Origin: Pomacea canaliculata
Lineage: Eukaryota > Mollusca > Gastropoda > Architaenioglossa > Ampullariidae
Length of the DNA: 64,000 nucleotides
Reading direction: 5' to 3'
Assembly (NCBI RefSeq): GCF_003073045.1
Contig: NC_037596.1
Span: forward strand, 15,007,012-15,071,011
This document shows positions 2,394-29,690 of this stretch, one piece after another (the stretch's first letter is position 1; each line of letters starts with the position of its first letter). The notes beneath the pieces were generated by a model that saw nothing but the letters and a program-made list of their open reading frames with translations, was not told where the DNA came from and made no database searches. Made by a program: the position numbers and the translations under genes.

Positions 2394-3301
2394 ATGGCCA
2401 GTGAGCATCAGGAGAAGTATAAGCACGCAGTGCACGTGCTTTCTTGTTTGAATGGCGAATGCAAGCCTCACATTGAACGCCTTGTCCAGCTTCTTGAGGA
2501 GAGAGGCGTCCAATGTGTCTACCAGGCAAGGGGAGACTATGGCATTGGAGGACTCTTTGCTACTCGCTTCAAACACTTCTTTAGGATCTGCGAGAGAACC
2601 GTCATCCACATTTGTCAAGAAAGCATTGAAACGGTTTGCCTCTAACTTATATTTCAATATCTAAATGATTACCTGTTAAAAAGCCTCTTAAAGAATTACA
2701 CTTAATAAGTTTAAAGTGTTTTACTCATTTAGAAGATTTATCTACGCCCGCGAATGTTCATGGTATAATCCAAAACATTCCAAATAAACCAAAGATCAAC
2801 TTAGCGTATATACAACATAAAGAGTAATCGTACAAGCCTTTTTAGCTTGCTGTGTGGTTCCAATACAGATTAAAATATCGAATTGACGATTGACAGGAAA
2901 AAGTTGACTATTCTTCCTCTGAACAGTTTTAGTTTTTGATTTCTTTCAGGTTAAAGAATTTGAACAAATTTTGCTTGATGGCGCAGAAAAGACATCTTTC
3001 TTTCGCATCCCATGCTCTCCTTTAGATTCCTCCAAATTTATCAAGCAGTTTAACGTTTGGGATCTTAGGGATGAACCTGTATTAAAAAGGTTCATTGACG
3101 AAATTTATAAGAAAAGACGCGACAGCCTAGATCTACCCAAAGCCTTTGATGAGCCTTCCTTGCCTGTCTCATCTGACGATCGTCACAAGGTCAGCCCCAA
3201 AACATTTAAAGCTGTATCCTTCATCCACCGAGGGGCAGTGTATCCAGTCCTGCATGTAGATGAGTCTTTTCTTCTTCCATCATCAGCTGAAAAGCATATC
3301 A
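2394..3301 (+). other. Gene A exons 1-2: TIR-like N-terminal domain
   Basis: Residues about 1-160 follow the TIR alternation: a first strand (HVLSC), a helix beginning CKPHIERL, a strand and BB-loop-like stretch (GVQCVYQARGDYGIGG), a helix (FKHFFRICERT), a strand (VIHICQES), then a helix and a strand ending FRIPCSPL, and a final helix with DEPVLKRFIDEI. TIR domains act as adaptor modules or as NAD-cleaving enzymes. I cannot place a catalytic glutamate with confidence, so enzyme activity is not claimed. The exons join in phase 0 (2633 to 2950). The end of exon 2 (RGAVYPVLHVDESF) is shared with gene D. The call rests on the predicted fold pattern, not on strong sequence identity; another Rossmann-like fold is possible. 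Confidence 0.5.
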
Positions 3302-6300
3302 GTAAGTCAATTCAATCAGTTGAGACTTTTCTCGTTCCGTTTTATCGGCATTATTTCAGGTTCTTATCTTTACTCTACTTGTTTATTTTGGATAAACTTT
3401 CTGTAGCTGTATAGGATTAGTTATATCATTGCCATTATAAATAAACTGATAAATATTGGTAACATTTAATGCCTTTGCTCATGTCTGATTGTGTGACTAT
3501 GTGCTCATATTAAATATCACGGTATTCTATTAAAGAGGGTGGACCTTTTATCCCTTCTCGTCCAAGAGCATTATATAAGGTGGCCCCCTTGTAAGTAAGT
3601 GCCTTGCCGTGAATATTTAATTTTAATTTATTAATTTAATCTGTGAGCAAACAGTAATCACAGTCTTTAGTTGGTTGGCTTCTTTTCATTGTTTTTAACT
3701 CACTGGTATTTTTAAAATTTTGAATCGACATTTATAATTTCTCGTGTGTACCTCCATATTTTTCAGGAAAATCTATCCAAGGAAACATTAATCCAGAGAG
3801 ATGTCTAGACTTCAGCAAAGAAAATCCGGATGTTCTGTTCTTCATTCTGAATGAAGTTATACCGGACCTCTACAAGCAAGGGGAGATCACTCGCCTCTCA
3901 CAGTTAACAAGATCTCATCAGCCCTTACTTCGAGATCGCGCCCTTCATTACATACAGTTGCTGCTGCTTCTCAATAAGGAACCACCGTCCTGTGTCAGTG
4001 ATATGAAAGAAACAGAAACTAGCTTGTTCAGTCTGTTTTCAGATGCAGAGATTTCACAGAAGGATGAAACACTTATTAGGGTTATTGTGACTTACCTCAT
4101 GGCACTAGTCAGGTTCATCATGGCCTGCCACTCAGAAGGTAATGATGGTGAGTGCAAACGTCACCTCAATGCCATCTCTCACAGAGAAATCTTTAAGAAT
4201 CAAAAATTAGTTAAAAATGATGGAAAATCTGCCATCAAAAATACTGGCGCATTAATTAAAGTCGTGCAAAACTGCGCGCATTGCTGGCATAAGAACTCTA
4301 AGAGGCTTAACACTAAAATCATTGGCACAGAGGATTGCTCAGGAAACAAAGCAAAGCAGCTGTCATCAAAAGCACTACAACTGCTTCTCTTGGTTTCAAG
4401 TCTAATTCAGGTAAAAACATAGATATATACATTCAATTTTTGTTTTTTGAAGAAGCAAGCATTTTGTCATTTTGTGGTATAGAATGTCATACGATTCATT
4501 CACATCCATTCACATAATTGAAGATGTATACCATCTATCTAAGGAAGTTGATACAATTTCACGTTTATACCCATTCACTCAAGCAAAAAATAGTACGAAA
4601 AGTGGAGTGAAAATTTGAAAACCTTTAAACCTTGCATTTTATTATCCTATTTCTGAAACGTAGTGTTTTATATATTCCACTAGCTAAACAAAGATGGTAA
4701 CTTCGCTACGTACAGCTACCGCTTTTACCAGCTGAACCTGAAGAGGAGCACAGGGGCATCCTTATCAAAATCTTTTGAAATTATTTTAGCACATATCAAC
4801 ATTTGCGGGCTCAGAACCTTTCTTGAGCACAGAACAAGTAAGAATGAAACAGAATGCTCAAATTAGACATCTCTATTTATCTGTATATAAAATGATATAG
4901 AATGTAGATAGCGAATATGAAAGACAAAGATAAAGAAATAAGAGTGTGTAAGAGAGAGAGATTAAAGTACCATAAAGAAGCGGCATATGCATGAAATTAC
5001 ACATCTTTGTTATTATTATATTACTTCAACTTTACAATATTATGCAAAAAAAAGTAATACAAACACCGTTAACATTCAAATATAAAACATGAGCGCAAAA
5101 GTCACTTCCTATCCAGAACCTATCCATCTACACACCATCTACAGACATATATATGTATAAAAGCACATCATACCAATTAAGTCTTAATTTTTTCACCTAA
5201 CAGAGGCTCTTTTTTATATCTGTATAAATAGTTTTAATGTAAATTTTTTTTTAAATAAGTAATTCTACTCTGTAGCGACAGAAGAACTGGCATCTACATT
5301 CAGCTTTTCTGAAGGTTGCAAGGAGGCAATGAAAATTCTGTCTGAATCGCTTCTAATTCTCGACGAGCATGAAAGACCGCAGTTGCTTAGACAGCTAACG
5401 ACTCTATTTTTTCATCACAACAGTGATATACGAAACGAATCATCTAAGCTGTACAACGAGGACAAGTAAGTTTGCGATTGTATTTTGTTGTTGTTTTTTG
5501 CAGTATTGTGTACGTCTGACTCTTTGAGATGCTTTAGTATGGGTCGTTTGTATATGAGCGTATATATATGAATGCATAGAGATATTATATTAATTTGTGA
5601 GTACCAAAATCTCCAAAACCGTTTTATATATATATATATTGACCCACGTTGAGTTCTATGTGCTCATGTCCTTAACAGCATCCCGTTCGAAGTTATTGGA
5701 ATCGAGTCCAATCAAACGATTTGACTTTTACACAAGACAACCACCTCCTGCTAGCATCAGTGCATAGAAGTCAGGAGACAGAAGCAATTGATTCTCTTCA
5801 CAAGACACATTATATCTCAGTCTTTTATTAAAATAATTTGATTCATATTCTTGATATGCTTCACTCTTCAAGCACATTATATTGAGCAATCTTATGTAAA
5901 TAGTACACACAATATATGCTAATTTTTAAAATGTCATTTTGCTTTAAAATAATCATGACTTTCGTGTGTGTTACATCAAGGATTATGACCATGACACATA
6001 TTCTGTGGGAAAATCTGCTATTGACATCGAAAGATCTTGTCAGTCCGCTGATGAAAAATGACAGCCCCGAGTACTCGTTTCCAATCCACGTTGACTGGGG
6101 TTGGACAGTGGTCAAGCAAGACTTTAGTATTGAAGGAAATCACATTTTGATGCATGTGTTGTGTCCTTCAACCAAAGAGCATGAGGAAGGAGTCGAATGC
6201 AGTCCGAAAGACGAAAGATTTAATGAACTTCGACTTTTAAAGGCCCTCCAGCATCCTCACATTGTACAGCTGCAGGCCTACAGCGAAGTCTTCTGGCCAC

Positions 6301-9300
6301 AGTTCTATATCACCGAGGACTACATGATCGGAGCATTGCAAACCCTTCTCGTCAACAAAAGCCGCGAAAATAACTTTTATTCTCTAAAAGAGTAAGCATT
6401 GCTTTATGTGATTTAAAACTCTAAATATACATAATTGCAATACTGTTTTCTTTTCAAACTAAGGCCTACATTTTTTAGAGTGTCACTACTTGAATGGTTT
6501 TTATTCATGTAATCCACGTTTACTTTGATTAAATTTTTATCGTCATGAATTTAGTTAATGCCTTAGCTTTGGTCATTACTAAAGTGTATAATCCAAGGGA
6601 CAAAAATACTTCCAAAACTTTTAGAATCAAAGACATATTGCGGCAAATTGTAAATGATATTATGGTGCACGGCTTCAGGTTATTGATGTTCTTAATCGAA
6701 GCAATGGAAGGAGTGCAATACCTTCATAGCAACAACATTGTGCACAGACATCTGACGACCGCACACTTATTCATCAGCACCAGCGGGAAGGTCAAACTGA
6801 GTGGACTAATGCACGCTCGTAAACTATCACAGGACACGATTAGAGGTATGTTCGATGTTGCGTCGTAAAAACAACATTCGTGGATCGTGTGAATATTTGT
6901 ATTTGTTGTATATACCCTTTACTTCCCATTCAAATATTGAATGGCCAACCAGACCTATGCGCCTGTGGTCAACCTCTTACAATCGATAGGAGGTGTCACT
7001 GCATATTACGATCCTTGAGCAAAATAATGAGCAAGAGTTGCCTGCACATTGTCTAACACTAGTCATGTATATTATTTCTTCATATCTGCAGATTTTAATT
7101 GTTCGTTGATTCCTACGAGATGGAGTGCCCCTGAGTCCTTGAAAGAATGTCTGTTCTCCAAAACGAGTGACATGTGGATGGTCGGTCATCTTATCTATGA
7201 AGTTCTAACGCACGGCAGGCTACCATATGCCGACATAGGACTGGATGACACAGAAGTTATCCCAGTGGTGAGTTACACAAGATCATACAAAAAATAAACT
7301 TTAGTAGTAGAAACAGTTTTGTTTCCAAAGCCCGTTTCAACTACAAGGCTTTGGATGCTCTCAGCCCCTGTGAGAAGGTCAATTGGTCTCAGAAAAGCAT
7401 ATACTTATTCATCCTTGTAACGGATTATTCTTACACAATAAATACAGGGATAATTAAAAGTAATCATTATTATAAGTACAGACGATGAAAATCTGTAGTA
7501 GACATAAGCACATTGCATACAACGGAATTATAGCTGAATCGAAAATTACACGAACTTGGTTAAACAAAGTTATAATTTAAAATCTTTTTTTACTTCTTCT
7601 TTAGGTGGTAGACGGTACAAGGGTACTATGCGAAGAATCGTGCATTCCTAATCCCATCTATAAAGTTATTTCACAGCTCACGAAAACAGAACCTTCATTA
7701 CGCCTGTCAGAGGTCAAGGCTGTCATTGATGTGCTCGAAAGTGAGGAAAAGCAGATGAACAAAGGTTAGAAATGTCAATATAGCCGTAGTCCTTTGCTAC
7801 TTTTCAACTGAATTTGGGTTGATCATCTTACAAATTGATAACAAGCAAGAGACAAATAAAAGAAGTTGAAAACTCGTGAATGTAATATTAAGCTAAAGTG
7901 TTATGTGCACATTTAGGGAAAATCATCGGAAAGCTAATGCAATCACAAATTACCTCGACAGAGACTAAACTGTAATCTCCTGTAATCTCGATATCTAGAT
8001 ACACGTTAATTTTGTTTAAAAAATGAGCAATGACAATGCATTTTTCATTTTCAAATTAGTTTTTATTGTTCAACCACTTTTAATCAATCATCTTAGGAGA
8101 AATTACTTTTGCAAAAGGAAAACAAAATTAATGCCTATTTAATACACATAATATAATAATAGGAAGGATCTTGTGTGTTACCGTAAATAGAATAGCTACA
8201 GGGATGAGTATCAAACTAAAAGTATATGACACTGGCGAGATTATTTATGCCCCAATTTTTTATACCGTCCGTTTATCAATTCCTTGAATTTTTTTCTTGC
8301 AGACATGAAGAGTATGATATTTCCAGACATAAGGGGAGAAGGACAAGCAGCAACAGAGCATGGAAAGGTCATTTTGGTGTAGCAGCTGCTTCTTTGATTA
8401 GTTTAAGTCAATCAAAATACTACCTCGAATATTTTAAATACCCTTGTAAATCGTCAGAATACATTAAAATATTTTTGTTACGTGTGTCGGTTAAGTTGAC
8501 AATCGCGAGTAGTTTATATGAATGACTTTTGCTGCACATCCTGGATGAATAGCCAGACACTAGTAATTATGTTTTTTCTTGTTCTTAACAGTGAGTTTTT
8601 CAATTGACATTTATCTGATACCACTTGCATGCACACGTACACACACACTAGCACACATGTAAAAGGAATAAAGACTGTTGCCAATACGTTTCCTGTATCC
8701 CTCTCACATATAAAGCCATATTCATTTATTTAATTAGAAACAAAAGCATTCACGCACACATAGGAATCGTTAAAATATTTTTTTTTGTTATACAGGGTCC
8801 TATAGCTTCAGTGCTTAATAATATGCTGGATGCTTCAGGTAAGTAATTACCTATACTCTATATGTAATCGGTAGTTTTATATTTTAGTGATTCACACAGG
8901 TACTTTAAGCTGATAATGATAATAATATTAGTTTCATGCAATAATAATTAAATACTGTGTTTACGTTTACTTTTCTCTCGACTGCAAATGAGAACATAAG
9001 ATCTGTAAATGATTTGCCTTTCTTTTTCAATTCTATTTGTGTAAAAAGTATTAAGTCTGCGGTGGAGAGGAGAAATTTGCTATATAAATCTGCCAATTAT
9101 TATTAAGCCTAAGATATACAATTGAAGCCAAGAAAGACAGAATCATTTTTTTCATTTTTTGTCGCCCCTTTTATGCTTCCAGATGGCTTGTATAGTAAGG
9201 GAAATAATGAGGTTTTGAAGATTGAAAACTCGAAGCATCAGGTTTCTTTGGTAAGTGATGTTGCACACAAATACTTGTTCCATGAATAGCTGGTATAATT

Positions 9301-12300
9301 TAGAGACAACTATTTCAAAAACACACAAGGCGTCAGCCATTCTTACAGAGCAAATTAACTGGCTGCTTGCTCTGTACTTGGCTCAGTCTGTGGGTTCTAA
9401 TCCCTTTTGAGTAATGAAAAGGCTACGAACATTCTGAATTAAACTAGTTGTTTTGTTTGGTTCTACTTCTTTTTTCTGCTTTATCATTCTTATTCCTGTA
9501 TTCTCATTCTGGTTTTACTCAATTCCTTAGCCATGTTTGTTTTTTGTTTTATCGTAAGCTGTTCCTATCTTTCTACTTTTTTCCTTCAACTTTTTAAAAG
9601 TAAAAGATTTACTTTCCCTTTCTGTCATCAAATAAAAACGTTTTGAATGGATATATACAAATACATATTGTATATTTCTTGCCAACTTTCGATTTATGTT
9701 CTTTACACAGAGAGGTCTTATCCAAATCCAAGAAGTTTGTCCAAAAGATTTTTCCACTAGTGTCTTTTCACGCCTAACGAGTTGTCATCTCCCTGGAATC
9801 TCACCACTGATCAGTCACCCAAGAATAACTTCAGACGAAAAGCAGGAATTTGTCAGTTCATACATTTCTTTATGTGTTTTTCGTAATATTGACGAAGCCT
9901 TTTCTTTAGTATCATAAGTCAGTGAAGCAGCTAATGGAATTGTTTTTGATGATCTTCTCGTTCACATTATTTTGTTTTCATAAGCTCTATATATATTATT
10001 CAGAAAAGAGAGAGAGAAAGAAAGAGAGCACCACAAAGAGTCATTGCAGTGGCACGACTAGTAAATTAATACATGTAGAAGTAATAGAACATTCTGAAAA
10101 TTTGTATCAAATTACGGAGATTACTCTAAAAATTCTGAGAGATACTGCTAATCCTTCTCGGGTTAAAACCTTCTTTCGTCTATTAATGACTGATTAATGA
10201 CTAATATAGACAATATTAAAAATGTAAAGGGTAAAATTGAGGTAAATATAATCACTAATAAATGATAAATTCTTATATTGATTCTTCCATATATACAATG
10301 CATTTTATATATTATAGAACCCCAAACAAAAGCATGAAGTAAATAATTTTCTTTATTATGATTTTTTAAAGTCCTTTTGGCTTCCTTCAGAGCACAGTAT
10401 GTGCTCACTTGTAAATGCTGTCCATTCGTTGCTGCTGGGAAGGGACATCAAAGAGTACATCCAGTGCCTTGCAAACATTGCGTCAGTCATCGCAGACCTC
10501 CACTCACATGGACTTGTCCTTTGTGACTTCAGAGCCGACGCAATCTACGTTGAAAAGGATCCCACTGCTACAGGGCAGATGACAAAAGTGAATTGACAAA
10601 TTTCAATTAGCTATAATAAGTTATAACTGATAAACAAAACGTGAATCGTGAAGAACATGGTAAAATTAGTAAATTGTCGTCTGGCTTGTCAGTGGGTGTG
10701 AATATTTTTGTAATGGCGACTAGTTTCCAATTGCTCCTACAAGTAAAAAAACAGCTGTAATAGCATTATGGTCCTCTTGTAAAATTAAAGAACAATTATG
10801 GACACGTGTATCCGCCCTTCTACACATGTCAAAAATACATGATCATTGTTGATATTAATTTAAGGTTTTTAAATAAAAATAACAGTTTTGCAAAAGGAAT
10901 GTATTAAGCAAAATATTTTAATTCCGAAAAATACTTAAAAGAGGAAAAGTTACAATAAACTTTCAGTAAATTAGGCTCACACCATGGCCTGACTTTTTAT
11001 TAGTTAATAAGCAACACTTTTTATTCTGCCATGATTGGAAACAGGTTTTTATTTTCTTTAAACAAAAAATAAAATAAAAGAAATCATCCATCACTAACGA
11101 TGGTAAGGAAACGGGATTATTAGCGATTCTTAGAACTCAAGGAACTGCATTTGTAATATTACATAAAACTTTAGCCTATTTAATATCAATAGAGAGATGT
11201 TTGCACAAAGTCTGATTTTTTTTACTAATAAACAAAATTGTACTCAAACTTTGTCAGCATATAAAATGCATATGCATTAGTAAAAGCGTGACTTTATTAC
11301 CAACGTAAAATGTTGCAAAATATTTTCAGAAAGTGTCAGTTGTAATTAATTTGTCGTGCAGGTATGGCTTGGGTCATTGGCAAACATGCGCATCCTGCAA
11401 CCTTGTGGTGAAAAGGAAGATCAGCATATAGAAATCGCTCCTCCTCAAGACAACGAAGTTTGCGGAAGGTCTTTTTCCATCTTAAAGCGTTCTTGGTTTG
11501 AACATTTAAAAAAAATTCTTAAAATACTCCCTATGAAAAGGCTGTCATATTGTCTAGCTAAAACAACAGACAGCATGGTGTACACTTAGATATTTACTTT
11601 TTTCTCAGATTTGCAGACTTATACACACAATGAACGTAAAATCAACAAAATATATACGAAAACAAACACGTAAAAAAGCGCAAAAAATGTTAAACGACAA
11701 TAAACTAGCGGCCCTTCTAACTGAATATGTCAACAGGGCGGCACCAGAAGTTGTGAAGGATGGCCTATACTCACACGCCTCGGATGTCTTTTGTTTTGGC
11801 CAGTTGATGTGGTGGGTCATCAATGGCTTTTGTGAAGCTGAAGATCCATCCACTCAGGTAGCAAAGTGGGAACTTGTTGGTACTTTTGAGAATATAAAGA
11901 AAAGTCATTTTCTATGTTTATATTCACTAAAATCTGTAAAATACAAGGTATGAACTTGAGATAAAATGTAAATATACATTTTTAAGATAATAATATTTTA
12001 CGCAAATTTGCCAGTAAAGTAAATTCTTCTAATTCACTTTACAAGATAAGGTCTTAAAAGAGCTAGTCTGTCTTTATTTTTACCAAAATTACTTAATTCA
12101 ACGTACCTGTGGTGATTAGGAAATCAAGTTGTCTTGTTGTAACCTATTTATATCGAATTACAGGTATATAACAAAATCGAAGACATTTACGATTCGTCAC
12201 TGGGAAAGATACCACAGGCTTGTCCTCGTCACATTTACACCCTGATCAAGTGGTGTTGTCTGACAGAAAAAAATCGTCGACCCCCAATACACGTTGTGCA

Positions 12301-15300
12301 AAAGTATCTTACTGGGTAGGTGAACCACTGCGTTTGTATCTTTGCATGAATGCATTCATGTATTTACATATACACTGAACAATATGTCCGTGCCAGTGTG
12401 GTGTGTTTATGCATTGAGTGTATGAGAGAATGTATGCACGTACATGTGTGTAATAGTGAGTATATCGTAAAGATGATTGTCTCTGTATAATATACTTACC
12501 TAATACACACAAACAGGAGAAAACGTGTGTCGAGATAAAAATAGTTACAGACGTTTTACTTACTTTTGTTATTTAGTGTTTGTGCAATTAAAAATAAGAA
12601 CGCCAGTTAGCAAACATTATTTTTTATTGATATTTTGCTTTCGATTGTCTTAAAACAGTGAGGAAGAGCAGTTTCCCATCGATATTGACTATGAAAACGC
12701 TGAAGATGGTTACCCTCTTCACAATAAAGACAAAGACAGCCATAGTTCAACCTCTAGCGGCTACATCTCTGAATCAATTTCTTCAACGACTCTGAGTATT
12801 TCCTGTGAACCTCCACCTTTACCTCCTCGCCGTACTGTGACTTCATCGATTTCACCTCGTAGCCCCAAAGAGATAAATGCACCTTCGTCTCCAGAATGTA
12901 GTCCTCCACCACTTCCGCCACGCTTACATAAGTTATCAACAACCTCTTTATCTCCGCCGCATAGTCCTCCACCACTTCCGCCTCGCCAAATTAAAAAAGC
13001 ATCCAGTCTTCCACCTCATTCGTCACCCGCGTCTGGTGCACAAGCTGCACGTTCATTATACCAGACAGGTCCCACTTCACCTCCCCCTTTACCACCTAGA
13101 AAGAAAGCTGTTTTAAAATCTAGCACTTTGCCTCCTTCGTTCAGTCAGTCGCTAGATGAACCTTCTTCAGCGCCTGTTCAACAACTACCATCTAAACCTC
13201 AAGAAGAGAAATCTTCACCCAACTCCCTGAAAACATTTTCATCAGTCAATTCCCCTCCAGTAGCACCGTTATCCAGTATTGTGGAAGACCAAGATTCATC
13301 AAGCTGGCCAGGAGCGATACAATCATGCAAAAAAGACCATTGGGAAAGTAAACGGTATGAATAATTTTCACCACTTTATATTTACCAGAGATCCTGATGA
13401 AAATAGTGCTATCTGAATCAGGATGACAAATTTGAGTGTATATTATATTAAACATATTTAGTTCTAGTTTGATTCTTTTCCCAATTTTTGTTTTGCATGT
13501 TTATTTCAATCATTTCAGTGTTAAAAGCAAATAAGGGTATTTACTAGAAAGTAAAATACTGTTGACAGCGTAGTAGGCAAGATCACTAAAAAGCTTTAAA
13601 AATTTTATTTTTGTATCAACCAGGCTCAGCGTGAAAGACATTTCAGTGACGTCTCCTAGAAAACTCCGGAGGAAAACTAGAAGCAAGTCAGACTCCATTA
13701 AAGAGTTTACCTATACTGTGGCCGATTCCTCGTGTGACACCATACAGGTTAAGGGTAAGATTCTTAAGACTTTCGCTTGAAAATACTATTGTTCTCATTT
13801 GTTTAATTTGTTGTCTGAAACATTTTTCAGTGAACTTCATATTGTAATGACTCTGATTGCAGTAATACTTGTTTTGTTACGGGACACAAAACGCGATATA
13901 CTTTTACAGTATGTAACAGAGCGTTATCTTAAATGTTCTCTAAAGCAGCAAGCATTTTACAGAGGTAATAATCGACTTCTTTCATTGGTTACAAAAAGCT
14001 GAATTGGTCCATAAAAATTGTATTCTAAGTCCTCTAAGCCCATGCATTACATGTTGTTTATGGGCAGCTTAAAAATATAACAATTATTTTTTCCGTCATA
14101 CTTAGTTGTCTCAGAAAAGTCGGGTGCGACTGTGCGCATGCAAACTTCTGAACCGGGGATGAAGTGTTTGGTGATCCGTGGAACACGTGGTCAGATTCAG
14201 GAAGCTCTCCGAATAATTACCATTAATACAGGAAAAAAGGTTAGTTAAATATGTGTTAATGGCTCTCTCTCACTCTCTTGCTATTTATATATCAAGATGT
14301 GCGTGTGTGTGTTTATGTGTGTGCTATGAACGCCGATTCAATGTTTAAGCTCTCAGCACTTCAATGAAAGTCAACAAAACAAGAAGACACGGTGTAACAA
14401 ATACAAAATAATCACATAAAAAGTAACTATATGGATGGTATAATATATGGAAATTGATTTCACTTAAAGAACAAGTGAATATCTAAAATATGCTTAGCAA
14501 GAAACACATTTTATGTCTCTGTCTAGATGGTTGGATGGAGAAATAAATAAACAGAAAGATAAAATTAGAAAAAAAAGATACTTCATAAGCAGAAAGGCAC
14601 GTAGTATTTCCATGTGGGAAAAATCATTAATGGATATATATATATTTGATAAAATTGTCAAAGCTTCCTTTTCCCTAGCAAGTCCCACATGTCACCTTAA
14701 AAATACAGATCGAGATAGAACTTGGAAATAAAATCTACCCTAAGCAAACGTTGTTATTGACAAGAAGTATAATATGGAAGTAACAAATTAATTTGTAAAC
14801 ATAGTGTACAGGCAATAACAATATTCATCTTTATTATTTAAGCTAAAACATATGGTTTATGTATTTAAAATTACATTTTGATTATTTACATTATAGAATA
14901 CAGTTCCTTTGTGTGATTGCGTATTGCAACAGTTTGTCTTGTTTTTTTTCTAAATTATGATCAAAATAGAATGGTTAATCGTCGTTCTATCTTTATATTT
15001 TTATATGTTTATTTGTGTAGTCAACGTGGAATTAATATTTTTACAAAGCTTTTTCAAAACTCCTCATTAAATAATTATATAGAATGAGAAAATGTCAGTG
15101 ATAGCAAACTCGGTTACAATTAAATAACAACAAAAAACCTCTCTTTGTCGTTCTTTTGTTTCATAGTTCTTATAGTTTCATTTTAGAAACTTCTACTTTA
15201 TTCCACAGGAGGAGATCATCAACACGACTAAGGCAGTTTGGATCGAATGGGTTAAAAAAGCGTTTCCTGACTTTGAAAAACGCACCTATTTCGTCCCTCC

Positions 15301-18300
15301 AGTCTGCATCTCACGCGTGCCAATGGTCAATAAAATATCTGCAGGTCATAAGGTGTTAATGCTGATTCAAAATAATACACAAGACAACTCTGCAAAGAAC
15401 GATTTCCAACAAACGTCCGTACAGAAAAGTGATGTTCTCGATGACGAAGCCTTTCAGCGATTAGTGTTCAGTCTCAAGACATTCTCGAAATTTCATAAAG
15501 AAGTCTTTATGTGTCTTAGTCAGCTTCCTTTCGGATCGTATCTGGGTAATCCGGACTTTTTCCCAGCAACTGCTCATCTCCCGTTGCCTATCAATCTGCC
15601 GGAGACATGGCCATAAGCTGGAGACAAGGAGACTTCGACATGTTCCTCATTCACAAGCAGTATGGCTTCGTTGTATGTGAGGTGAAAGCAATGGTTTACA
15701 ACATTGACACACCAAAAGAAGAGCGAAGCAAACAAATGACAAAAAAACTGAACGATGCCAAGATGCAGTTAGACAAAGCGGAAGCCATGTTGTCTCACCT
15801 GGTGTCAGATGTCGCTCCTGACATGCGCATAACCAAGACAATCGTTTGTCCAAACCTTACGTCACTTCAGATACAAGAAATCATACATGACAACCAACAA
15901 CTGCAGCAGGTTAGTAAGAGTGTTTCTCGGAAAGACGTGTCACAAGAGTTAATAAATGGATGTGGAAGGAATGGATAGCTATCACGAGGTTATTCAAAAC
16001 AGGGTTCATTAATTTAATGGAATCTATTAGTCATTAGCAAGGACCAATGCAATTTTTATCAATCTCAATTCTTCTTGCTTTTTTCCTAAGCATTTCTTTT
16101 CTTTTCGGAACAAAAGCATTTGTGAAGCACATTAAAAATAGTCTTCGACGTCTTGGATATTTTAAGTAAATAAGCTGAAATTAGACTTAAAAAGGTTTCT
16201 TTGTTGTTTTCCATTTTTATATGTATAAACATTAATTTTTCTGTGGTTTTTTTAGGATCTGTTTCAGTGTTTTAAATTGAAGAAATTTGCTGATGTCTCC
16301 GGTATGATTATTTGTTCCGATCATCTGTGTGACCCTGAACCGTTGACAAGTATAACAGCTGAAAAAGTCAAGAAGTTGTGGGAGTGGTGGAAAGCATTTG
16401 TAGCTGAACCAGGATCTGAAACTCGCATGAACACATGTCCTGACGTGTACAAAAATCTTGTAGCCAGGTATTAATATTAAACTGAATCGTACTTGGTTTC
16501 AAATGATAAATGTTTGCTCTGAATTAAGATTAAGTGAATAGTATTAATATTTATGTCACTTTGCAGATTATTTGTCACCAAAGGTCGGTTGACACACATA
16601 TTTTAAACCTAAGTAATGATTGTTTACAAGTATGCAACAGCTTTACTTTAAAGTTAGTCACAAGAAATGATGTTTAAGTTGTTTCTATTAGGTTCTGTGG
16701 ACCAGCCTCTGCAGTAACAGTGCCGTGTGTAACCGAACCTCGTGCTCACATCAAGACAATGGGCCAGGCGGTGTCCCATGTGGGGGATTGTTACACTGCT
16801 CATACCATATTGTTTCCCGAGCAAATTGAGTTGCTAAACAGAGCTTCCCCAAGAGTTTTTATTGTTGGCCCTCCGGGGACTGGAAAAACTACTGTACTGC
16901 TCCTGATGGCCACGGAATGGCTTCGTCATGGCAACGACGTCTACGTCTTGAGTACGTGGGAATCAAGTCTAGCGGCAACACACATGCTGCACCACCTACT
17001 GCAGCAAATGCTAAAGACACACCTCGCAAAAGTACCCACACATGGACAGGTACTCGTAAAAATATTAAATGGTAAAAAGGACTTCATTCAGGACCTGGAT
17101 GATCTCACTCGAGCAGCAAGCAAGGGAGGCCTGCACATCATCGCTGACGAAGTAGGACCTGACCACGGGTAAGTTCACAGCGTTATGTGTTGACAAACAT
17201 TGTCAACAAACAACTCAAGATAATAATTAATCGACACCATAACTTAGTTTGAATTTCCATGAAAAATCCAAATGACAAAAAATTAATATATTTTATAACT
17301 GCACAATACAGTAAGATATCTCAAAATAGCTAACAACAGCTGTTTTGTTCACGGATTCTGTGTGGGTTGCAAACTGTTTTTTATTACCTGTAACACTATT
17401 CTCGTGACAGGCCTGAATCTCATGTCTTCCCAGAATTCTGCACTCAGTTGACAGATCGTTGTAAAAATCAAGACGCGGTTCTTTATCTGTGGGCTGCTAG
17501 CTGCTTCCATGCACAGGCACCTGTCAAGCAAGACCACCAGCATAAATGGGAACTGGAGTCTTTCACCAGACCACTCCGCTCTCCACCAACTGTAATCCAG
17601 GAAATCAAGAAGGCGGAAGAGATCAAGAATCAAACTGTTCAGGAATACACTGAGCGGGGTGTGCCTGATTTTACAGAAGGTCCAGCCGTACACTGGATAA
17701 TTCATCAAAGCCAAAGACATTTCTACAAAAATGTTGAAGACTGCAACATTTGTGGGAGTGTAGTGGCTAAATTTCTACTAAATGAACTACACCTGGGTGT
17801 CTCTTTGACTTGTAAGTATCATTTTTCTGTTTCATGAAATTTACAAAAAAAAAAAAGTACACGGTACCAATGTGAAATAACCAGTTTGACTAATATGTAG
17901 TCAAATAAATGAGTTAGTTAAGAAGACGACTGAAAGACTCTCGACAACAGGCAAGTTGCATTCGCAAGGATTATTTCAGCGGTGATTATTCTTTCTTTAC
18001 ACCATGTATGTCTGTCCGGGTTTATGGCCAGAGGTTTACTAAACTTTAGGAGCGCTATGAAAAAACATTTCTTGATATTGTTCTTGAATATGTGCTGATA
18101 GCTTTTGTGACTTTTTTTGGGATGCCTACGCAAATCTTGAAGTGGAACTGATTAACAAATGAATTTGTTCCTGACTTTACAGACTAATGATGAAATTCAA
18201 ATATTTACAATATGAACATCAACACTTGTTGCGGCAGGTTACTGTAAGTTTTATTTAGTCATAAAAATTTTTTGGAGTAAAAAACTTTCCTGAAAGTCTT

Positions 18301-18767
18301 ATTATCTTAGACTACTTACGTAGTAATTTATACATACTTTGATAGTAAACTGCATTTAATTTTATCATTATTATTTCAATGTGTTAACAGCACATACTGA
18401 ACTATCAGGAACTTTCACTCCCTCTAAAGACAGCAGGACACCAGAAGGCCTGAAGTACAGAGACGTCTTGATTTTGTCTTTGCTCGAACTTCGTGAAGAT
18501 GCCCCAGTACTGAAGGCGCTGTCAAACGCTAGCATTCCAGTGCGAGTACTGCGTGAACAGAACATCCAGGACGTGGCTACAGCCGGAAGTAACGTCGTTT
18601 GGGCGGCAAAACAGCAGTTGGTTCGGGGTTTGGAAAGAAAAGTTGTTGTGTGTCTAGTCAATGATACTGATGAGAAAAACCCGCACGCTTTCACAAGACT
18701 TTTTGCCATGTCCAGATGTTCATCACAGCTAGTAGTCGTGCCCCTCCTGATATACTGCAGTCCTTAG
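2394..18767 (+). CDS. Gene A: TIR-like / double pseudokinase / SH3-ligand / KH / nuclease / SF1-ATPase fusion protein
   Basis: Proposed exons: 2394-2633, 2950-3301, 3767-4410, 4684-4837, 5276-5465, 5981-6391, 6679-6845, 7092-7267, 7605-7764, 8303-8367, 8796-8838, 9183-9250, 9711-9882, 10391-10587, 11362-11457, 11609-11857, 12164-12315, 12659-13354, 13624-13754, 14106-14239, 15209-15909, 16256-16467, 16692-17168, 17411-17811, 18391-18767. All junctions are GT-AG and phase-compatible, giving about 2,220 residues. One base is missing in exon 15209-15909, so the frame changes near 15611; this is either a sequencing error or a disabling mutation. The kinase half continues in phase into the KH/nuclease half through the proline-rich exon, so I read one fused gene rather than two neighbours. 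The ATG at 2394 directly follows an AG, so an upstream 5' exon is possible. Weakest exons: 8303-9250 and 11362-11457. I know of no named protein with this domain order. Confidence 0.75.
3767..5465 (+). other. Gene A exons 3-5: conserved helical region
   Basis: About 330 residues rich in leucine and alternating charge, probably all alpha-helical. Blocks shared with gene D include LFFILNE(V/I)IP..Y, IRD/LRD..LH.IQLLLL, TYL.ALV..IM.CH, ECxRHL.AI and, in the last exon, HHN..IR..S.KLYN. The paired exons in D have the same borders and phases, which shows this is coding sequence under constraint. I do not recognise a named domain; armadillo/HEAT-like or death-fold-like helices are both conceivable. 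It links the TIR-like domain to the first kinase-like domain. Confidence 0.7.
5981..7764 (+). other. Gene A exons 6-9: first kinase-like (pseudokinase) domain
   Basis: Residues about 527-831 contain protein-kinase landmarks. The helix-C to strand-4 region reads RLLKALQHPHIVQLQ, the hinge YITEDYM. The catalytic loop is NNIVHRHLTTAHLF, with HRH in place of HRD and histidine in place of the usual asparagine. LSGL stands where DFG is expected. The APE motif (RWSAPESL) and the helix-F SDMWMVGHLIYEVLTHGRLPY are good. No VAIK-type lysine is visible in strand 3. Loss of the ion- and ATP-handling residues makes catalysis unlikely; family knowledge suggests a regulatory or scaffold pseudokinase, of tyrosine-kinase-like style judging by the APE and helix-F region. 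Confidence 0.85.
9711..12315 (+). other. Gene A exons 13-17: second kinase-like (pseudokinase) domain
   Basis: Residues about 890-1178 form a second, more decayed kinase fold. The strand-4 to hinge region runs over exon 9711-9882 (PRITSDEKQEF, SLCVF). The catalytic loop region is LHSHGLVLCDFRADAIYV, where the HRD position is LCD and the loop asparagine is gone. VWLGSLANM replaces the DFG strand. RAAPEVVKDG with SDVFCFGQLMWWVI gives APE and helix F, and PQACPRHIYTLIKWCCLTEKNRRP is the classic C-lobe ending. The exon borders at 9882 and 11457 are inferred from phase and weak donors. Tandem kinase plus pseudokinase layouts occur in JAK proteins, but here both copies look inactive. Confidence 0.7.
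12659..13354 (+). other. Gene A exon 18: proline-rich linker with four SH3-ligand motifs
   Basis: This 232-codon exon encodes a disordered, serine/proline-rich segment. It carries four near-identical PPxLPPR cores at about 12810-12830, 12903-12923, 12966-12986 and 13080-13103, three of them PPPLPPR, some followed by further basic residues. These match class II SH3 ligands (PxxPxR/K). An acidic stretch opens the exon and SSTSSGYISES follows, a possible tyrosine phosphorylation site. The exon joins both neighbours in phase 2 and so physically connects the pseudokinase and nucleic-acid halves. It has no equivalent in genes B and C. Confidence 0.85.
13624..14239 (+). other. Gene A exons 19-20: basic segment plus KH-like half-domain
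   Basis: The first exon encodes a basic patch (KLRRKTRSKS) that could be a nuclear-localisation or RNA-contact segment. The second encodes SGATVRM, then V.I.GTRGQIQEALRIIT, which matches strand 2, strand 3 and the last helix of a type I KH domain. The usual N-terminal KH portion with the GxxG loop is not visible, so this is a partial or highly diverged KH. The same exon pair, with the same phases (1 between the exons, 0 after), recurs once in gene B and twice in gene C. KH domains bind single-stranded RNA or DNA; binding here is inference. Confidence 0.7.
15209..16467 (+). other. Gene A exons 21-22: PD-(D/E)XK (NERD-like) nuclease domain, frameshifted
   Basis: The conserved block VFMCLSQ.PFGSYLG precedes WRQGDFDMFLIHKQYG and then VCEVKAM, giving the D...ExK signature of the PD-(D/E)XK/NERD fold. 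A lysine-rich helical stretch and DMRITKTIVCPNLT follow. The exon is 701 bp, whereas the equivalent exon in gene C is 702 bp. One base is missing between the WP codons (15608-15613) and the SWRQG codons, so the upstream frame stops at 15614-15616. Without that lesion the domain would keep its likely active-site residues. Exon 16256-16467 adds CSDHLC and a tryptophan-rich helix, conserved in B and C. Nuclease activity is predicted from the motif only. Confidence 0.75.
16692..18767 (+). other. Gene A exons 23-25: SF1-helicase-like P-loop ATPase
   Basis: Motifs in order: a Q-motif-like FPEQIELL; Walker A GPPGTGKTT; motif Ia-like VLSTWESSLAA; Walker B HIIADEVGPD; motif III region LYLWAAS; motif IV-like FTRPLRSPP; a conserved EDCNICG pair of cysteines; and a C-terminal GLERKVVV with AMSRCSSQLVVV resembling motifs V-VI (AMTR in SF1 helicases). 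The layout recalls SF1 ATPase domains such as those in UvrD-like or Schlafen-type proteins. The final residues differ from B and C (PLLIYCSP instead of CPP..EPD/E), which suggests a second small frame change just before the stop. Helicase unwinding is unproven. Confidence 0.8.
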
Positions 18768-24553: not shown

Positions 24554-27500
24554 TTAGTCCGGTTCACATTCGGGTGGAGGGCACACGACCACCAACTGTG
24601 ATGAACACCTCGACATGGCGCGTAATCGGATAGAAATATATTTGCCTTTACTGTCGTCGTAGTTATTAAGAACGACGACAATTTTCCTCATTAAACCAAA
24701 AATTAGATGATGTCTGGCAGCCCAGACCACGTCACTGTGCGCTGTAGCAACGTTCTCGATGTCCGAGTCTTTCATCACACACACTGGAACATTGTATGAT
24801 GACAGCGCCCTCAGTACTGGGGCGTCCTCACGAAGCTGGGTCCACGACAAGATTAGAACATCTTTGTATCGTAGGCTTGGTGTTGACTTGCTGCTAGCGA
24901 GAGATCCGTCAGTGTCGTGTGGTTTGGAATTAGAACCCATGCCTAGAAATGTAAAACCAATTATTGGTTGGACAAAAAGCTTATTTAACAGACTTAACAG
25001 TTTGGAAGGACCATTTGTACATAAGGAGAACCTGAGTAGTGAATTCTATCAATTTCTATGCATGGAAATATTGCATTATTGAACGACACAGATGAAAAAA
25101 ACAGTATTCAAAGGGAGAAGTATTTACATCGGCAGCTAAAGAATGACCTGAAACCGAGTCCATCACCATCACCACGCAGGTTCAACGAAGGCGTTGGGGA
25201 TGGATTGGACATGTGCTCCACCAGCAGACAGCAGACCTCTCCAGAGTCGCCCTAAGATGGACTCCAGACGGCCGAAGAAAACAAGGCCGCCCAAAGGAAA
25301 CTTGGAGAAGAACAGTGGAAATGGAGATGAATGGAAAGGGCTGGACATGGGGTCACCTAGTGGCTGACTCTGGTTGAGGCCTTATGTGCAACCTGATGCA
25401 CGAAGAGGATTAGATAGAGCTAAAGAATGATAGAAAAATTTATATTTTCTAACTCAAATTTAAAGTTCTACAAGTGCATTCTTATGTTGCTTGGCTCAAT
25501 AGGAAACAATTTTTCAACTTGTGAGTGAATTGCTACCTGCTTCTAAGGTACAAGCCTTAAACACCACAGTACCCTGAGCAAAGTCTTAGCCTCGACAGCA
25601 CGACCGTAGTCTTAAAGATAAAACTATTTGAGAATTAAGCGCGTCCATTGTGATACGTAGCAAACTATGTTTAGTTAAGTTTTATCATTACTGGTCTGCG
25701 CAGCAAGTGCGATCTATCTTAGCCGTTGTTGTTATTATTATTATCAACAAAAGTAGTCTTTCACGTGTAAAAAATATGAATTACTCACAAGAAGTAGACA
25801 GGCCTATTCGAAGTTCTTTGCATAGGAATCGTGCTACCTCTCCACCACAAACAACACAGTCCTCAACTCTTGTACAGCCATGCTGCGGCACATGATGTTG
25901 AAACCAATTTACTGGTGGACCGTCTGAGTGATCAGGCAAACCTCGGTCAGTGTAATCACGGACTGTACGGTCTTTGGTAATCTCTACCGCCAATCTGATT
26001 TCTCGCAGAACAGATGGCGGGGAGCGGAGTGACCTAGTGAAGTGAACTAGTTCCCAGCCCTCTGATCCTCCATCGTAAAGATCTTCTGGAGCGACATTAT
26101 CATAGCAACTTGACGCCCAAAAATGGAGATCACAACCTCGAGACCGACAACGGTCTAGAAGATTTGCGCAGAAGTCTGGAAAGATGTAGTTCTCTGACCT
26201 ATGGACAACAGACAAGCACATCCAGAACTTTTCAGTTTTGACTGTTTATTTAAGAAAATGTACGTGTTTATTATGCTAATATTTGTGTTATTTTAATATT
26301 GTCGTTTGCGAATAGTTTCATTTAATAATTATATTCTACACATTTATTCATAAATCAACATACCTATTGTATATGTATGGACGGGTATTTGTAGTAATGG
26401 ATAAATGAATGCATGTATGTATGTAGTTTTAAACTTACTCAAAGACAGGCCCGACTTCGTCAGCAATGACAGACAAAGGTCCCTGACAAGCAAGCTCCAC
26501 TAGCTCAGTCAACGTTTCATCGACTTCCTGCTTTTTTCTAAAATTTTTCCTTATGAATATCACACATCCTTCCGTGATCAAGGATGTACAATCTTGTTTA
26601 CGTATCTCCTCCAAAAGATGGCGCAGCCTAAATGTTGCTGCAAGACTGCGATCCCAGGTGCTCAAGATGCAAACCTGTCTGCCTTCCTGCATCCAATGTG
26701 TACCCATCTGGAGCAGAGCAGTTGATTTTCCTGTTCCCGGAGGACCGGAAATAAACACCTTAGAAGGAGCTCTGGTGAGTAACTCAATTTGCTCCGGGAA
26801 TAGTGTGACATGCGCAGTATAGCACTTCCCCACGGTGGCCACTGCCTGGTCAAGAGTCTTGATACACACACGAGGTTCATTTATACATGACACTGTCACC
26901 GTAGAGGCAGGTCCACAGAACCTGAGTAGGCAAAGTATATCAGCAGTTAGTCAAGATAAATAAAACAGGTCTGGCTTAGCAAGCATACTGACACTGTAAA
27001 ACTGTTTTCAATTGCTTTCTTTAATTGTCCTAAAACGGAATCGAGACTTTCTTTTAAATTTCCTTGTCTACTGAGAAAAGGTAACAAATGTACAAAGGAA
27101 ATAACCACTAAATATGTATTAACATTATGTGTCGAAATCAGTCTTAAATCGATTAGCATATTGTCACCATCATTTACGAAGAACAGTGTGTGAAATATTG
27201 CCAAATAGAAATGATCCATCAAAATGGTGCTTGACATATTATTTGTTCTTCTGTTTTTACCTTGCTATTAGGCTCCTGTACAAATTGATGTTTAATTGTG
27301 TGTCAAGACCTGACACACTTATCGAGTCCTCCCACCACTGTTTAAATGCCTTTATCTTACTGTCTCTGACACGCTTTGGCATTTCAGGAGAACAAAGTTG
27401 ATCGGAGCAAAGAAACATAGCGGAAACATCGGCGGGATATTTGAATTTCATCAGGTCCTAACAGAGGAAAACAAAATAATCAACAGCTGCTGCTAAATAT

Positions 27501-29690
27501 TGAACTAAGTATACAGAACTATTTAGAAATGACGCACTTTATAAACAATTTATTAATGCCAATTTTCAATTTATAGTGCATGCATTTGATAATAAATAAA
27601 ATCTATCTCTCATTTAATTTTTGTCACTGAACCAAACTTTCCCAGAAATTTTCAATTTAAAAGATGAAAATAAGTCAGAGACGTAGAGAGATAATAATAT
27701 TGTTTGAAAAAAAGTATTTATGTTTACAGATGTATTCAGCTTTGCATGGTGCAACTTCCCTTCAGTTAAGACTACGAAAGTTAAATTTTTTAACAATATT
27801 CACAAAAATGTTCTAACCTGTCTAAGTTTCTGATTGGCTGAAAGGACATTTTCTATCTGCTGAGCAGTGAGGTTTGGGCAGGCTATGGTCGTAGTGATGC
27901 GTACATCAGAAGCGATGTCTGACAACAGGTGTGACAGCATAACTTCTTCTTTCTCTAACTGTGCTGTAGCTTCTTTCAAAACCTTGGCCACCCGTTCAGT
28001 TTGCTGTTCTTCGTGTGTTTCACTTACTGCTTTTATTTTTAATATAATACAACCGTAGTCCTTGTGAATAAGGAGGATGTCAAAGTCCCCTTGCCTCCAC
28101 TTCCATTGCCAGGCTGAGGACAGGTTGCTGGATACAGGAAGATGAGCGACTGCTGGAGCGAAGCGCGGTTCACCAAGATAGGAACCAAAAGGAAACTGAC
28201 TCAGACACATGAAGACTTCGTTATGTTCCTTAGACAACCTCCTTAAACTGTAAAGTACACACTGCAAGGCTTTACCGTATATCACATCACTCTTCTGTAC
28301 AGAAGGTATATTAGAACTTGGATGTAGTGGTCTAGCTGATGATGTCGCCACGGATTCCTTCATGTTATTACCCTGTTCATCTTCTGTTCTCAGTCTGACC
28401 ACACTCTGACCTGCAATAGTTTTCTTGGAGATTGACACTCGAGTGATGTAAACAGGAGGAAGGAAATAAGCGCGTTGTTCAAGATCTGGAAACGCTTGTT
28501 GAACCCAGTCAAGCCAATGTGCTTGTGCTTTTTCCAGTTCTTTTTCCTGTGGAAGGAGACCAATTCTTATTTTGTTTGCTAGGTGCTAAAGACTAACATG
28601 CAAATTTTGTCTCATAAATATTACTGGATAGACAAGTTGCTACAAACCTTCTCCCCTGTCGAAGTGGTGATTATTTGAAGAGCTGCTTGAATTTGCCCAC
28701 GAGTTCCTCGAATTCCTACAGTTGTCTTTCCCCTTACAGATGATTTAATATGCACTTTGGCACCTGATATTTCTGAGACTTCTGAATAAAACAAATCAAA
28801 GAGACACCTCATTAATATTCTTGAATTTGGAGCCAAACATAATGGTACTTTGGAGTTAAAATATATTAAAATAGTTAATAGCTGTACACAAAAGTGTTTC
28901 TGATAGTTAAGTATAAATTTAAAGAAATGTATTGTTCCCATAATTTTGAATTATTAGTGAAATAAGGTAAACACAAATGCTACTTTCTGTTATTTTACCC
29001 TTGAAAGATATGCAACTGCATAATTCGTCCTCCACATCGTAGACATATTCTCTAATGGAAATTGACTTCCGTCTTGTTTTGTTTAGTGTGGTTGGAGAAC
29101 ATCCTTTGGAGTACTTGGCATCCTGATTATCCTTTATGGAAGAGAGAATACTCATTATTTAGTATTGCATTACTCTCTAACTATTACTTCATCAATTAAT
29201 CAAATTTACTTTATACCGTAGGTGTATACCCTGACCTTTGTGATATTCCATCAAGAGATAAACTGTGGACATTCCACATGAAAAACGAAAAACATCGTTT
29301 AGGAGAAGGGAGAGAGAGAGAGTGGGAACACGTTTAGATAACAAGCGAGCAACAGCTAAGCAGAAAAAAGGAATAAACTTACAAGATAAGAAAGACAAAG
29401 ACAGCAAGAAAATTAGAAGACTAAAGAAAAAGCTATTGCTGCTTCGTGCCAAGCCAGCGACTAAAGATAAATCAGGGCCAAACTGCCAGCCCTGTAAACA
29501 GTTGCCGCTTACAGACAAAAACAACATTCCCAAATAAGGCAATGAACCATTGACAACAAGGTAACAAAGAAGGGCATCAAAAGAAAAATAAAGTAGGGAG
29601 TAAGTAAGAGGAGACGATAGGACGAATAAAAAACGGCAAAAAGACAAAGAACAACTCTTATGGTTTAGTCGTAAGACTTACATTATCCAT
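24554..29690 (-). CDS. Gene B: KH-nuclease-like-SF1 ATPase protein (short form)
   Basis: Exons in transcript order: 29690-29682 (ATG GAT AAT), 29131-28999, 28781-28648, 28546-27818, 27457-27261, 26921-26439, 26198-25789, 24942-24554. The summed coding length is 2,484 bp, exactly 827 codons plus stop, with consistent phases. Domains: basic segment KTRRKS (residues 4-47), KH-like half-domain (48-92), nuclease-like domain (93-335), CSDQLC helical segment (336-400), and SF1-like ATPase (401-827) with GPPGTGKST, IADEVGP and AMSRCSSQ. In the nuclease motif GDFD is kept but the ExK strand reads LKIKAV, so the catalytic glutamate appears replaced and the nuclease may be dead. B lies tail-to-tail with A and head-to-tail behind C. 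A young LINE sits in its last intron. Confidence 0.87.
25134..25430 (+). mobile_element. 5'-truncated LINE insertion with 13-bp target duplication
   Basis: The 271-bp body (25147-25417) is flanked by perfect AGCTAAAGAATGA copies at 25134-25146 and 25418-25430. It encodes the ORF2 tail RWGWIGHVLHQ, VALRWTPDGRRKQGRPK and TWRRTVEMEMNGKGWTW, ending NLMHEED, the stereotyped C-terminus of a widespread animal LINE. One in-frame stop interrupts the tail. The intact duplication implies a fairly recent insertion into the last intron of gene B, antisense to it. Confidence 0.9.
27818..28546 (-). other. Gene B nuclease-like exon with altered active-site motif
   Basis: The open exon of 243 codons carries EVFMCLSQFPFGSYLG, KWRQGDFDILLIHKDYG and IILKIKAV. 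The first acidic position (GDFD) is intact. The strand that reads EVK in A and C reads KIK here, removing the glutamate expected to help bind the metal. VRITTTIACPNLT near the end is conserved. The reading frame is otherwise undamaged, which argues for a retained non-catalytic role rather than pseudogene decay. Confidence 0.75.
29485..29560 (-). mobile_element. Decayed SINE remnant in gene B intron 1
   Basis: CCAGCCCTGTAAACAG followed by TTGCC is shared with the body of the complete SINE at 61592-61776, in the same orientation, and a weaker match continues through AATGAAC. Only the middle part is recognisable. Confidence 0.5.

What the first reader, a model, noticed from the sequence alone, without database searches (positions are those of the whole stretch)
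2394..18767. A single gene appears to join TIR-like, double pseudokinase, SH3-ligand, KH, nuclease and SF1-ATPase modules
Motifs for every module are seen in order on one strand, and all 25 proposed exons join in phase apart from one missing base. Each module is known from immune or nucleic-acid-defence proteins, but I know of no described family with this order. It would link a signalling half to an RNA/DNA-destroying half in one chain, a plausible undescribed innate-defence system (inference).
Basis: partly seen in the sequence, partly recalled or inferred. Interest (0 to 1): 0.9.

Follow-up and report, generated by a model that had tools for sequence, protein, structure and literature searches.

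The report
Kinase-nuclease immune gene cluster, unconfirmed fusion
An animal-like DNA stretch carries a small cluster of related genes built from a signalling half (two dead tyrosine-kinase domains and perhaps a TIR domain) and a half that looks made to handle and cut nucleic acids; in one copy the halves lie end to end and may be one protein, but next door the second half stands alone.

Summary
The 25 exons are real: all were found where stated, with 24 of 24 GT-AG introns and one frame change inside exon 21. Exons 2-9 recur in paralogue D and exons 19-25 in paralogues B and C in the same window, with the same intron phases (12 of 12 checked) and dN/dS of 0.14-0.36.

Domain calls are mixed. 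Both kinases and the P-loop pass Pfam cut-offs; TIR, KH and NERD-like nuclease fall below theirs. Both kinases lack key catalytic residues.

"A single gene" is not proven. B is an intact 832-residue KH-nuclease-ATPase gene with no kinase half found upstream. For fusion: strong, in-phase splice sites at the exon 18/19 junction and no in-frame ATG between kinase 2 and mid-KH. I put one transcript at about 0.65. As assembled, the frame change cuts off the nuclease motif and ATPase.

Most likely role (inferred): an immune protein in which TIR-like and pseudokinase parts gate a nucleic-acid-binding and -cutting module; like RNase L in logic, like bacterial MkoA and PglW in parts. No such architecture appeared in the rows listed by ten literature searches.

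The parts
2394..3301 (+). Locus A exons 1-2 (2394-2633, 2950-3301): possible TIR-like domain and linker; ATG at 2394
   Evidence: TIR_2 E 0.057, below cut-off; no PDB sequence match at E 10; last part of exon 2 conserved in D
3767..5465 (+). Locus A exons 3-5 (3767-4410, 4684-4837, 5276-5465): helical region
   Evidence: counterparts in D; AlphaFold of exon 3 all-helical but mean pLDDT 44
5981..7764 (+). Locus A exons 6-9 (5981-6391, 6679-6845, 7092-7267, 7605-7764): pseudokinase 1, tyrosine-kinase-like (no VAIK Lys, HRD->HRH, DFG->LSG)
   Evidence: PF07714 E 1.1e-35; tyrosine kinases in PDB, best E 2.5e-29; conserved in D; residue losses read by eye
8303..9250 (+). Locus A exons 10-12 (8303-8367, 8796-8838, 9183-9250): linker
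   Evidence: open frame and splice sites only
9711..12315 (+). Locus A exons 13-17 (9711-9851, 10372-10587, 11362-11468, 11737-11857, 12164-12315): pseudokinase 2 (HRD->LCD, DFG->LGS)
   Evidence: PF07714 E 1.7e-12 over exons 14-17; PDB tyrosine kinases, best E 7.8e-6
12659..13354 (+). Locus A exon 18: Pro/Ser-rich, four PPPLPPR SH3-ligand-type repeats; reading on past the donor meets TAA at 13362-13364; no Met
13624..14239 (+). Locus A exons 19-20 (13624-13754, 14106-14239): KH-like unit
   Evidence: KH_1 E 0.013; conserved in B and duplicated in C
15209..15909 (+). Locus A exon 21: PD-(D/E)XK / NERD-like nuclease (GDFD ... CEVKA) with a frame change near 15610
   Evidence: NERD E 0.13 in A and 9.5e-4 in copy C
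16256..18767 (+). Locus A exons 22-25 (16256-16467, 16692-17168, 17411-17811, 18391-18767): P-loop ATPase with SF1-like motif order; TAG at 18765-18767
   Evidence: AAA_16 E 1.4e-8; conserved in B and C; SF1 motifs by eye
24554..29155 (-). Paralogue B: 7 exons, intact 832-residue KH-nuclease-ATPase; ATG at 29155; nuclease motif degraded (LKIKA for EVKA)
   Evidence: no first-half exon found upstream to 33800 at E below 0.001
33797..40467 (-). Paralogue C: 9 exons, 927 residues open, two KH units, nuclease motif intact (FEVKA); 5' start exon not identified
   Evidence: no first-half exon found upstream to 51700 at E below 0.001
51760..64000 (+). Paralogue D: counterparts of exons 2-9 (linker, helical region, pseudokinase 1 with HRD kept but LSG for DFG); the window ends at 64000 before any counterpart of later exons

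Best explanation
This is an animal multigene cluster made of two conserved modules. Module 1 is a signalling half: TIR-like domain, helical region, two tyrosine-kinase-like pseudokinases and an SH3-ligand tail. Module 2 is an effector half: KH-like RNA/DNA-binding unit, NERD-like PD-(D/E)XK nuclease and SF1-like P-loop ATPase. At locus A the two modules are adjacent, co-oriented and most likely spliced into one chain (about 0.65). Elsewhere in the cluster module 2 occurs without module 1 (B, C). Proposed mechanism, inferred: infection-induced TIR or adaptor contacts (SH3 proteins on the PPPLPPR repeats) bring copies together; the catalytically dead kinase pair acts as a conformational or dimerisation switch; this releases the KH-nuclease-ATPase module to bind, translocate along and cut foreign or stressed-cell nucleic acid. 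Stand-alone module 2 proteins would be partners, or regulators where the nuclease motif is lost (B). Shown: exon structure, paralogy, purifying selection, kinase and P-loop homology, loss of kinase catalytic residues. Inferred: single transcript, TIR, KH and nuclease identity (below cut-off), nuclease activity, switch function, immune role.
For: Exons shared with B, C and D with conserved intron phases, 12 of 12 checked. dN/dS by NG86 0.137-0.288 in 7 of 7 comparisons, by YN00 0.239-0.360 in the 4 of 7 that could be computed. Kinase and P-loop profiles above cut-off, NERD and KH just below. Fusion: exon 18 donor at the 98.0 and exon 19 acceptor at the 97.7 percentile of + strand GT/AG sites, each left out of its own training set, and in phase; no in-frame Met from residue 1069 (kinase 2) to 1423 (mid-KH), so exons 17-19 offer module 2 no start of its own; one start-exon candidate of the right phase in intron 18, donor score 0.8 bits. 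Bacterial parallels: one PADLOC profile, MkoA, matches kinase 1 of A (profile 57-280, E 2.6e-16) and the ATPase of A (profile 628-704, E 3.7e-6) in the same order. NERD is listed for Mokosh type I and Nhi-like (PMC10952713 passages), and PglW joins NERD, an atypical tyrosine kinase and a Ser/Thr kinase in one chain (PMC4365076 passages).
Against: B is an intact module 2 gene without module 1, and no module 1 exon was found upstream of C, so fusion is not the rule in this cluster. As modelled, the exon 19 acceptor phase is 2 in A and 0 in C. Reading past the exon 18 donor meets a stop at 13362, and an ATTAAA lies at 13447, though ATTAAA occurs 23 times over the gene. Splice scores come from a matrix trained on these same gene models. 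Lack of a good start exon is what 83% of 2000 random 269-base intervals show. A's frame change ends the assembled protein before the nuclease motif. B's nuclease motif is degraded. Phmmer of the TIR region found nothing in PDB at E 10, and no TIR exon was found for D. The MkoA match is generic: mad6 fits kinase 1 better (7.6e-38), B's ATPase does not match MkoA at 0.05, C only at 0.052, and the nuclease piece of A matched no PADLOC model at 0.05. No expression data.
Confidence: 0.5

Rival explanations
1. Two neighbouring genes on one strand. Gene 1 (TIR-like, helical, pseudokinases, SH3 tail) ends after exon 18 at the TAA 13362-13364; gene 2 (KH, nuclease, ATPase, like B) has its own unseen first exon. 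The reader joined them.
For: B and C show module 2 without module 1. TAA just past the exon 18 donor and ATTAAA at 13447. C's first modelled exon has no in-frame start, so C seems to use an unseen 5' exon; A could too.
Against: Strong, in-phase donor and acceptor at the junction; no in-frame Met in exons 17-19; only 269 bases between the halves, with one weak start-exon candidate; no AATAAA at 13355-14105.
Confidence: 0.3
2. Locus A is a fused gene that is decaying. The frame change in exon 21 is real, and only the signalling half plus KH is now made as a 1591-residue protein. (Not exclusive of the other readings.)
For: Frame change in exon 21; N-terminal piece of 1591 residues. The last residues after SSQLVVV also depart from B and C, and another frame there looks more like theirs.
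Against: One clear break in about 2200 codons, and constraint is similar on both sides of it (A-B dN/dS 0.27 and 0.25). An assembly indel is equally possible.
Confidence: 0.3
3. Module 2 is mainly a nucleic-acid-binding or remodelling ATPase (RNA quality control or transposon silencing) rather than a cutting effector.
For: Nuclease Glu lost in B; KH duplicated in C; the P-loop is the best-supported part of module 2.
Against: D...ExK motif kept in A and C; NERD profile near cut-off in C.
Confidence: 0.25

Closest known systems
RNase L / IRE1 (recalled, no call)
   Same: kinase or pseudokinase domain gating a nuclease in one chain, used in antiviral or stress response
   Different: the nuclease there is a KEN domain, not among the Pfam families listed for the seven pieces of A; no KH or ATPase; the sensor is ankyrin or lumenal (recalled)
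Bacterial Mokosh MkoA
   Same: one PADLOC profile matches kinase 1 and the ATPase of A in the same order; NERD listed for Mokosh type I (PMC10952713 passages)
   Different: our kinases are degenerate and tyrosine-kinase-like; TIR-like, SH3-ligand and KH parts added; similarity of each part is generic; a PLD partner was not looked for
PglW (phage growth limitation)
   Same: NERD plus an atypical tyrosine-kinase plus a Ser/Thr-kinase domain in one protein (PMC4365076 passages)
   Different: order reversed (NERD first), second kinase active, the legend seen lists three motifs for PglW and no ATPase motif (Walker motifs are in PglY)
NERD-UvrD helicases (PADLOC C3a187, RTasNERD-Hel)
   Same: weak matches of module 2 to models named NERD+UvrD and RTasNERD-Hel (best E 0.0024 and 9.4e-4)
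   Different: prokaryotic models; the stretches shown lie around the P-loop; no KH
Schlafen proteins
   Same: nucleic-acid-cutting part followed by SF1-type helicase in animals (recalled); SLFN-g3 helicase E 0.0067; Schlafens at ranks 2 and 4 of non-significant Foldseek rows
   Different: no significant Schlafen match; the nuclease motif is of D...ExK type

Membership tests
Tyrosine-kinase-like domain | PF07714 profile above cut-off | tested here: met
   1.1e-35 and 1.7e-12
Active protein kinase | VAIK Lys, HRD Asp, DFG Asp | tested here: not met
   read by eye from translations: kinase 1 lacks Lys, HRH, LSG; kinase 2 LCD, LGS. D kinase 1 keeps HRD but has LSG
TIR domain | Pfam TIR profile above cut-off | tested here: inconclusive
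   TIR_2 14.3 bits against 28; no PDB match at E 10
KH domain | KH_1 above cut-off and GXXG loop | tested here: inconclusive
   18.0 bits against 21.5 in C; no GXXG seen by eye
NERD / PD-(D/E)XK nuclease | NERD profile above cut-off; D...ExK motif | tested here: inconclusive
   20.1 bits against 22.1 in C; motif kept in A and C, lost in B; AlphaFold blocks over the core 66-82 pLDDT, no significant Foldseek match
SF1 helicase | Walker A/B plus motifs III-VI and an SF1 profile | tested here: inconclusive
   P-loop met (AAA_16 1.4e-8); motifs seen by eye in A1; no SF1 profile above cut-off among the rows shown
Mokosh MkoA | kinase, NERD and helicase in one chain | tested here: inconclusive
   kinase and ATPase of A colinear on PDLC03920; nuclease piece of A 0 PADLOC hits at 0.05; B no MkoA hit
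Mokosh system | PLD-family partner gene | not tested
   no search made for one
RNase L / IRE1 | KEN ribonuclease domain | tested here: not met
   no such Pfam family among those listed at E 1 for the seven pieces (25 of 37 shown for the ATPase piece)
Single fused gene | one transcript across exons 18-20 | not testable with these tools
   no RNA data

The most novel reading that the evidence does not exclude
An animal single-chain defence protein that joins TIR, tandem pseudokinases, an SH3-ligand tail and a bacterial-type KH-NERD-SF1 effector, in a cluster where signalling and effector modules are fused in one copy and separate in others. It would be an animal counterpart in design of bacterial MkoA and PglW.
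Probability: 0.35. Interest if true: 0.85.

Novelty: new variant of a known kind. Interest (0 to 1): 0.55.

Why it matters
If the fusion is expressed, it would be a pseudokinase-gated nucleic-acid effector outside the RNase L/IRE1 design, and would show animals arriving at a kinase-nuclease-ATPase layout also seen in bacterial anti-phage proteins. Even if the halves are separate genes, the KH-NERD-ATPase family with conserved exons did not appear in the literature rows I saw, and the cluster offers a natural comparison of copies with and without the signalling half.

Tried and rejected
Prokaryotic or viral source of module 2: one scan of genome contigs and one of viral contigs with B+C (A2) confirmed no relative (44 and 23 pattern matches, 0 confirmed), and tblastn of part of C on plasmids gave no match at E 0.1. 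The two contig scans rest on two short peptide patterns each, so they do not exclude distant kin. No eukaryotic collection was available, so the spread of the family is unknown. Own-genome search: none held. Structure of the nuclease exon: mean pLDDT 55, best Foldseek rows non-significant (E 0.09 upward, 0 of 213 at 0.001). Helical exon 3: pLDDT 44, not searched. Whole spliced proteins were not folded because the fold tool asks for proteins the DNA gives letter for letter. First-half exons near B and C: looked for with 26 queries (25 exons plus the second piece of exon 21); at E below 0.001 only exons 19-20 hit upstream of B and only exon 20 (two places) upstream of C; the gap 18768-24500 and the stretch 1-2390 gave none at that level (lowest 0.006 and 0.003). 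A start exon for C: several candidates by score, none chosen. tRNA and Rfam at gathering threshold: none. NCBIfam: only weak rows, far below cut-offs where shown. Profile search of module 2 in PDB: 19 rows, best E 0.055, nearly all P-loop. Ten literature searches: I saw the listed rows only (1 to 15 each, of up to 1,140 papers holding the terms), and none of those rows showed this architecture by title or start of abstract. I read passages only of PMC8195603, PMC9334734, PMC10952713, PMC4365076 and PMC12926258. I tried the Millman 2022 Mokosh paper by its DOI (recalled); it is not held.

Organism: not identified. I suspect a mollusc from memory of similar sequences; no call supports that.
Full report
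What was checked. The window looks eukaryotic (GC about 36%, introns); no whole genome is held for it. All 25 exons are present between 2394 and 18767 on the + strand, 24 of 24 introns are GT-AG, and the chain reads through except for one frame change inside exon 21, near 15610. Splice sites were chosen partly to keep the frame, so that alone proves little. Scored with a matrix trained on the model's own sites, against + strand GT and AG sites at 20000-60000, the model donors lie at the 85th to 100th percentile and the acceptors at the 60th to 100th; the weakest are the exon 20 acceptor (60th) and the exon 14 and 13 donors (85th, 87th).

Paralogues in the same window. tblastn of the predicted protein against the window found three more copies. 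B (minus strand, 29155-24554) is an intact seven-exon, 832-residue KH-nuclease-ATPase gene with a plausible ATG. C (minus, 40467-33797) has nine exons and 927 open residues; exon 19 and the KH exon are duplicated, so it has two KH units; its start exon is unseen. D (plus, from about 51760) matches exons 2-9 and the window ends before later exons. Intron phases agree for exons 20-25 in A, B and C and for exons 4-9 in A and D, 12 of 12. dN/dS by NG86 is 0.137 to 0.288 over seven pairwise comparisons; YN00 gave 0.239 to 0.360 in four and failed in three. dS is 1.07 to 3.04, so the values are rough; the A-D comparison used five of the eight D exons, 480 codons. These are real, constrained coding exons.

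Domains. Above Pfam cut-off: two tyrosine-kinase-like domains (E 1.1e-35, 1.7e-12) and a P-loop ATPase (AAA_16 E 1.4e-8). Below cut-off: TIR_2 (0.057), KH_1 (0.013 in A, 0.0024 in C), NERD (0.13 in A, 9.5e-4 in C). By eye, kinase 1 lacks the ATP-binding Lys and reads HRH and LSG; kinase 2 reads LCD and LGS: both are pseudokinases. In D, kinase 1 keeps HRD but has LSG. The nuclease motif is GDFD...CEVKA in A, GDFD...FEVKA in C, and degraded (LKIKA) in B. Exon 18 carries PPPLPPR four times; 0 of 5000 shuffles gave any. SF1 motifs after the P-loop are my reading of alignment A1, and no SF1 profile passes its cut-off in the rows shown. AlphaFold on the nuclease exon of C (four-row alignment) gave mean pLDDT 55, with 66-82 per ten-residue block from residue 141 on, where strand, strand, long helix and strand follow each other; Foldseek found nothing significant, with EndoMS, a terminase nuclease and Schlafens among the weak rows and many unrelated folds too.

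One gene or two. For one: the exon 18 donor (98.0 percentile) and exon 19 acceptor (97.7), each left out of training, are both strong and in phase (phase alone is a one-in-three chance). There is no in-frame Met between residue 1069 in kinase 2 and 1423 in mid-KH, so exons 17-19 offer no start for module 2. The 269-base intron holds one right-phase start-exon candidate, with a poor donor; that point is weak, since 83% of 2000 random intervals also lack a good one. For two: B is complete without a kinase half, none was found within 11 kb upstream of C, reading past the exon 18 donor meets TAA at 13362, an ATTAAA lies at 13447 (a motif found 23 times over the gene), and the modelled acceptor phase of exon 19 is 2 in A but 0 in C. 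Both transcripts could exist, the short one ending in intron 18. I put a fused transcript at about 0.65. As assembled, translation of A would stop at 15616, before the nuclease motif.

Mechanism. The domain company suggests a gated nucleic-acid effector: TIR-like and SH3-ligand parts for assembly, dead kinases as a switch, KH-nuclease-ATPase as the acting part. This is inference; only the parts and their constraint are shown. The nearest working analogue known to me is RNase L, a pseudokinase that gates a ribonuclease (recalled). The nearest in parts are bacterial: PADLOC's MkoA profile matches kinase 1 and the ATPase of A in order, Mokosh type I is listed with NERD (PMC10952713 passages), and PglW combines NERD with two kinase domains, one atypical (PMC4365076 passages). 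Each single match is generic: mad6 fits kinase 1 better than MkoA, B's ATPase does not match MkoA at 0.05, and the nuclease piece of A matches nothing in PADLOC at 0.05. So this is a likeness of design, not membership.

Novelty. Ten literature searches showed no such architecture in the rows they listed; the library is open-access only and I saw at most 15 rows per search. Scans of prokaryotic and viral contigs and plasmids found no relatives of module 2. No animal sequence collection could be searched, so the family may be annotated elsewhere. I class it as a new variant of a known kind (kinase-gated nuclease / NERD-helicase defence proteins), with a bolder reading left open.

Noticed in passing
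window 44130-46279 (+): Exon-like ORFs upstream of D: cysteine-bearing pieces and one with a hydrophobic stretch followed by RKRR, as in a single-pass membrane protein. No Pfam match above cut-off. Could be a separate gene or the front of D, whose TIR part was not found.
   Followed up: partly
window 34116-34281 (-): 54-base tandem repeat, 3.1 copies, lies in the last exon of copy C and encodes an 18-residue repeat.
   Followed up: partly
window 42733-43107 (+) and 49040-49222 (+): Reverse-transcriptase remnants (RVT_1 E 6.6e-7 and 0.044) between C and D.
   Followed up: partly
window 24047-24460 (-): ORF resembling the zinc-binding tail of a retroelement (zf-RVT E 0.066, below cut-off), just past the end of copy B.
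   Followed up: no
window 18730-18780 (+): The C-terminal tail of A after SSQLVVV departs from B and C, and another reading frame there looks closer to theirs; possibly a second small frame disturbance.
   Followed up: partly
window 27818-28546 (-): Copy B has lost the Glu of the nuclease ExK motif (LKIKA) while the rest stays open and constrained: a possible pseudonuclease.
   Followed up: partly
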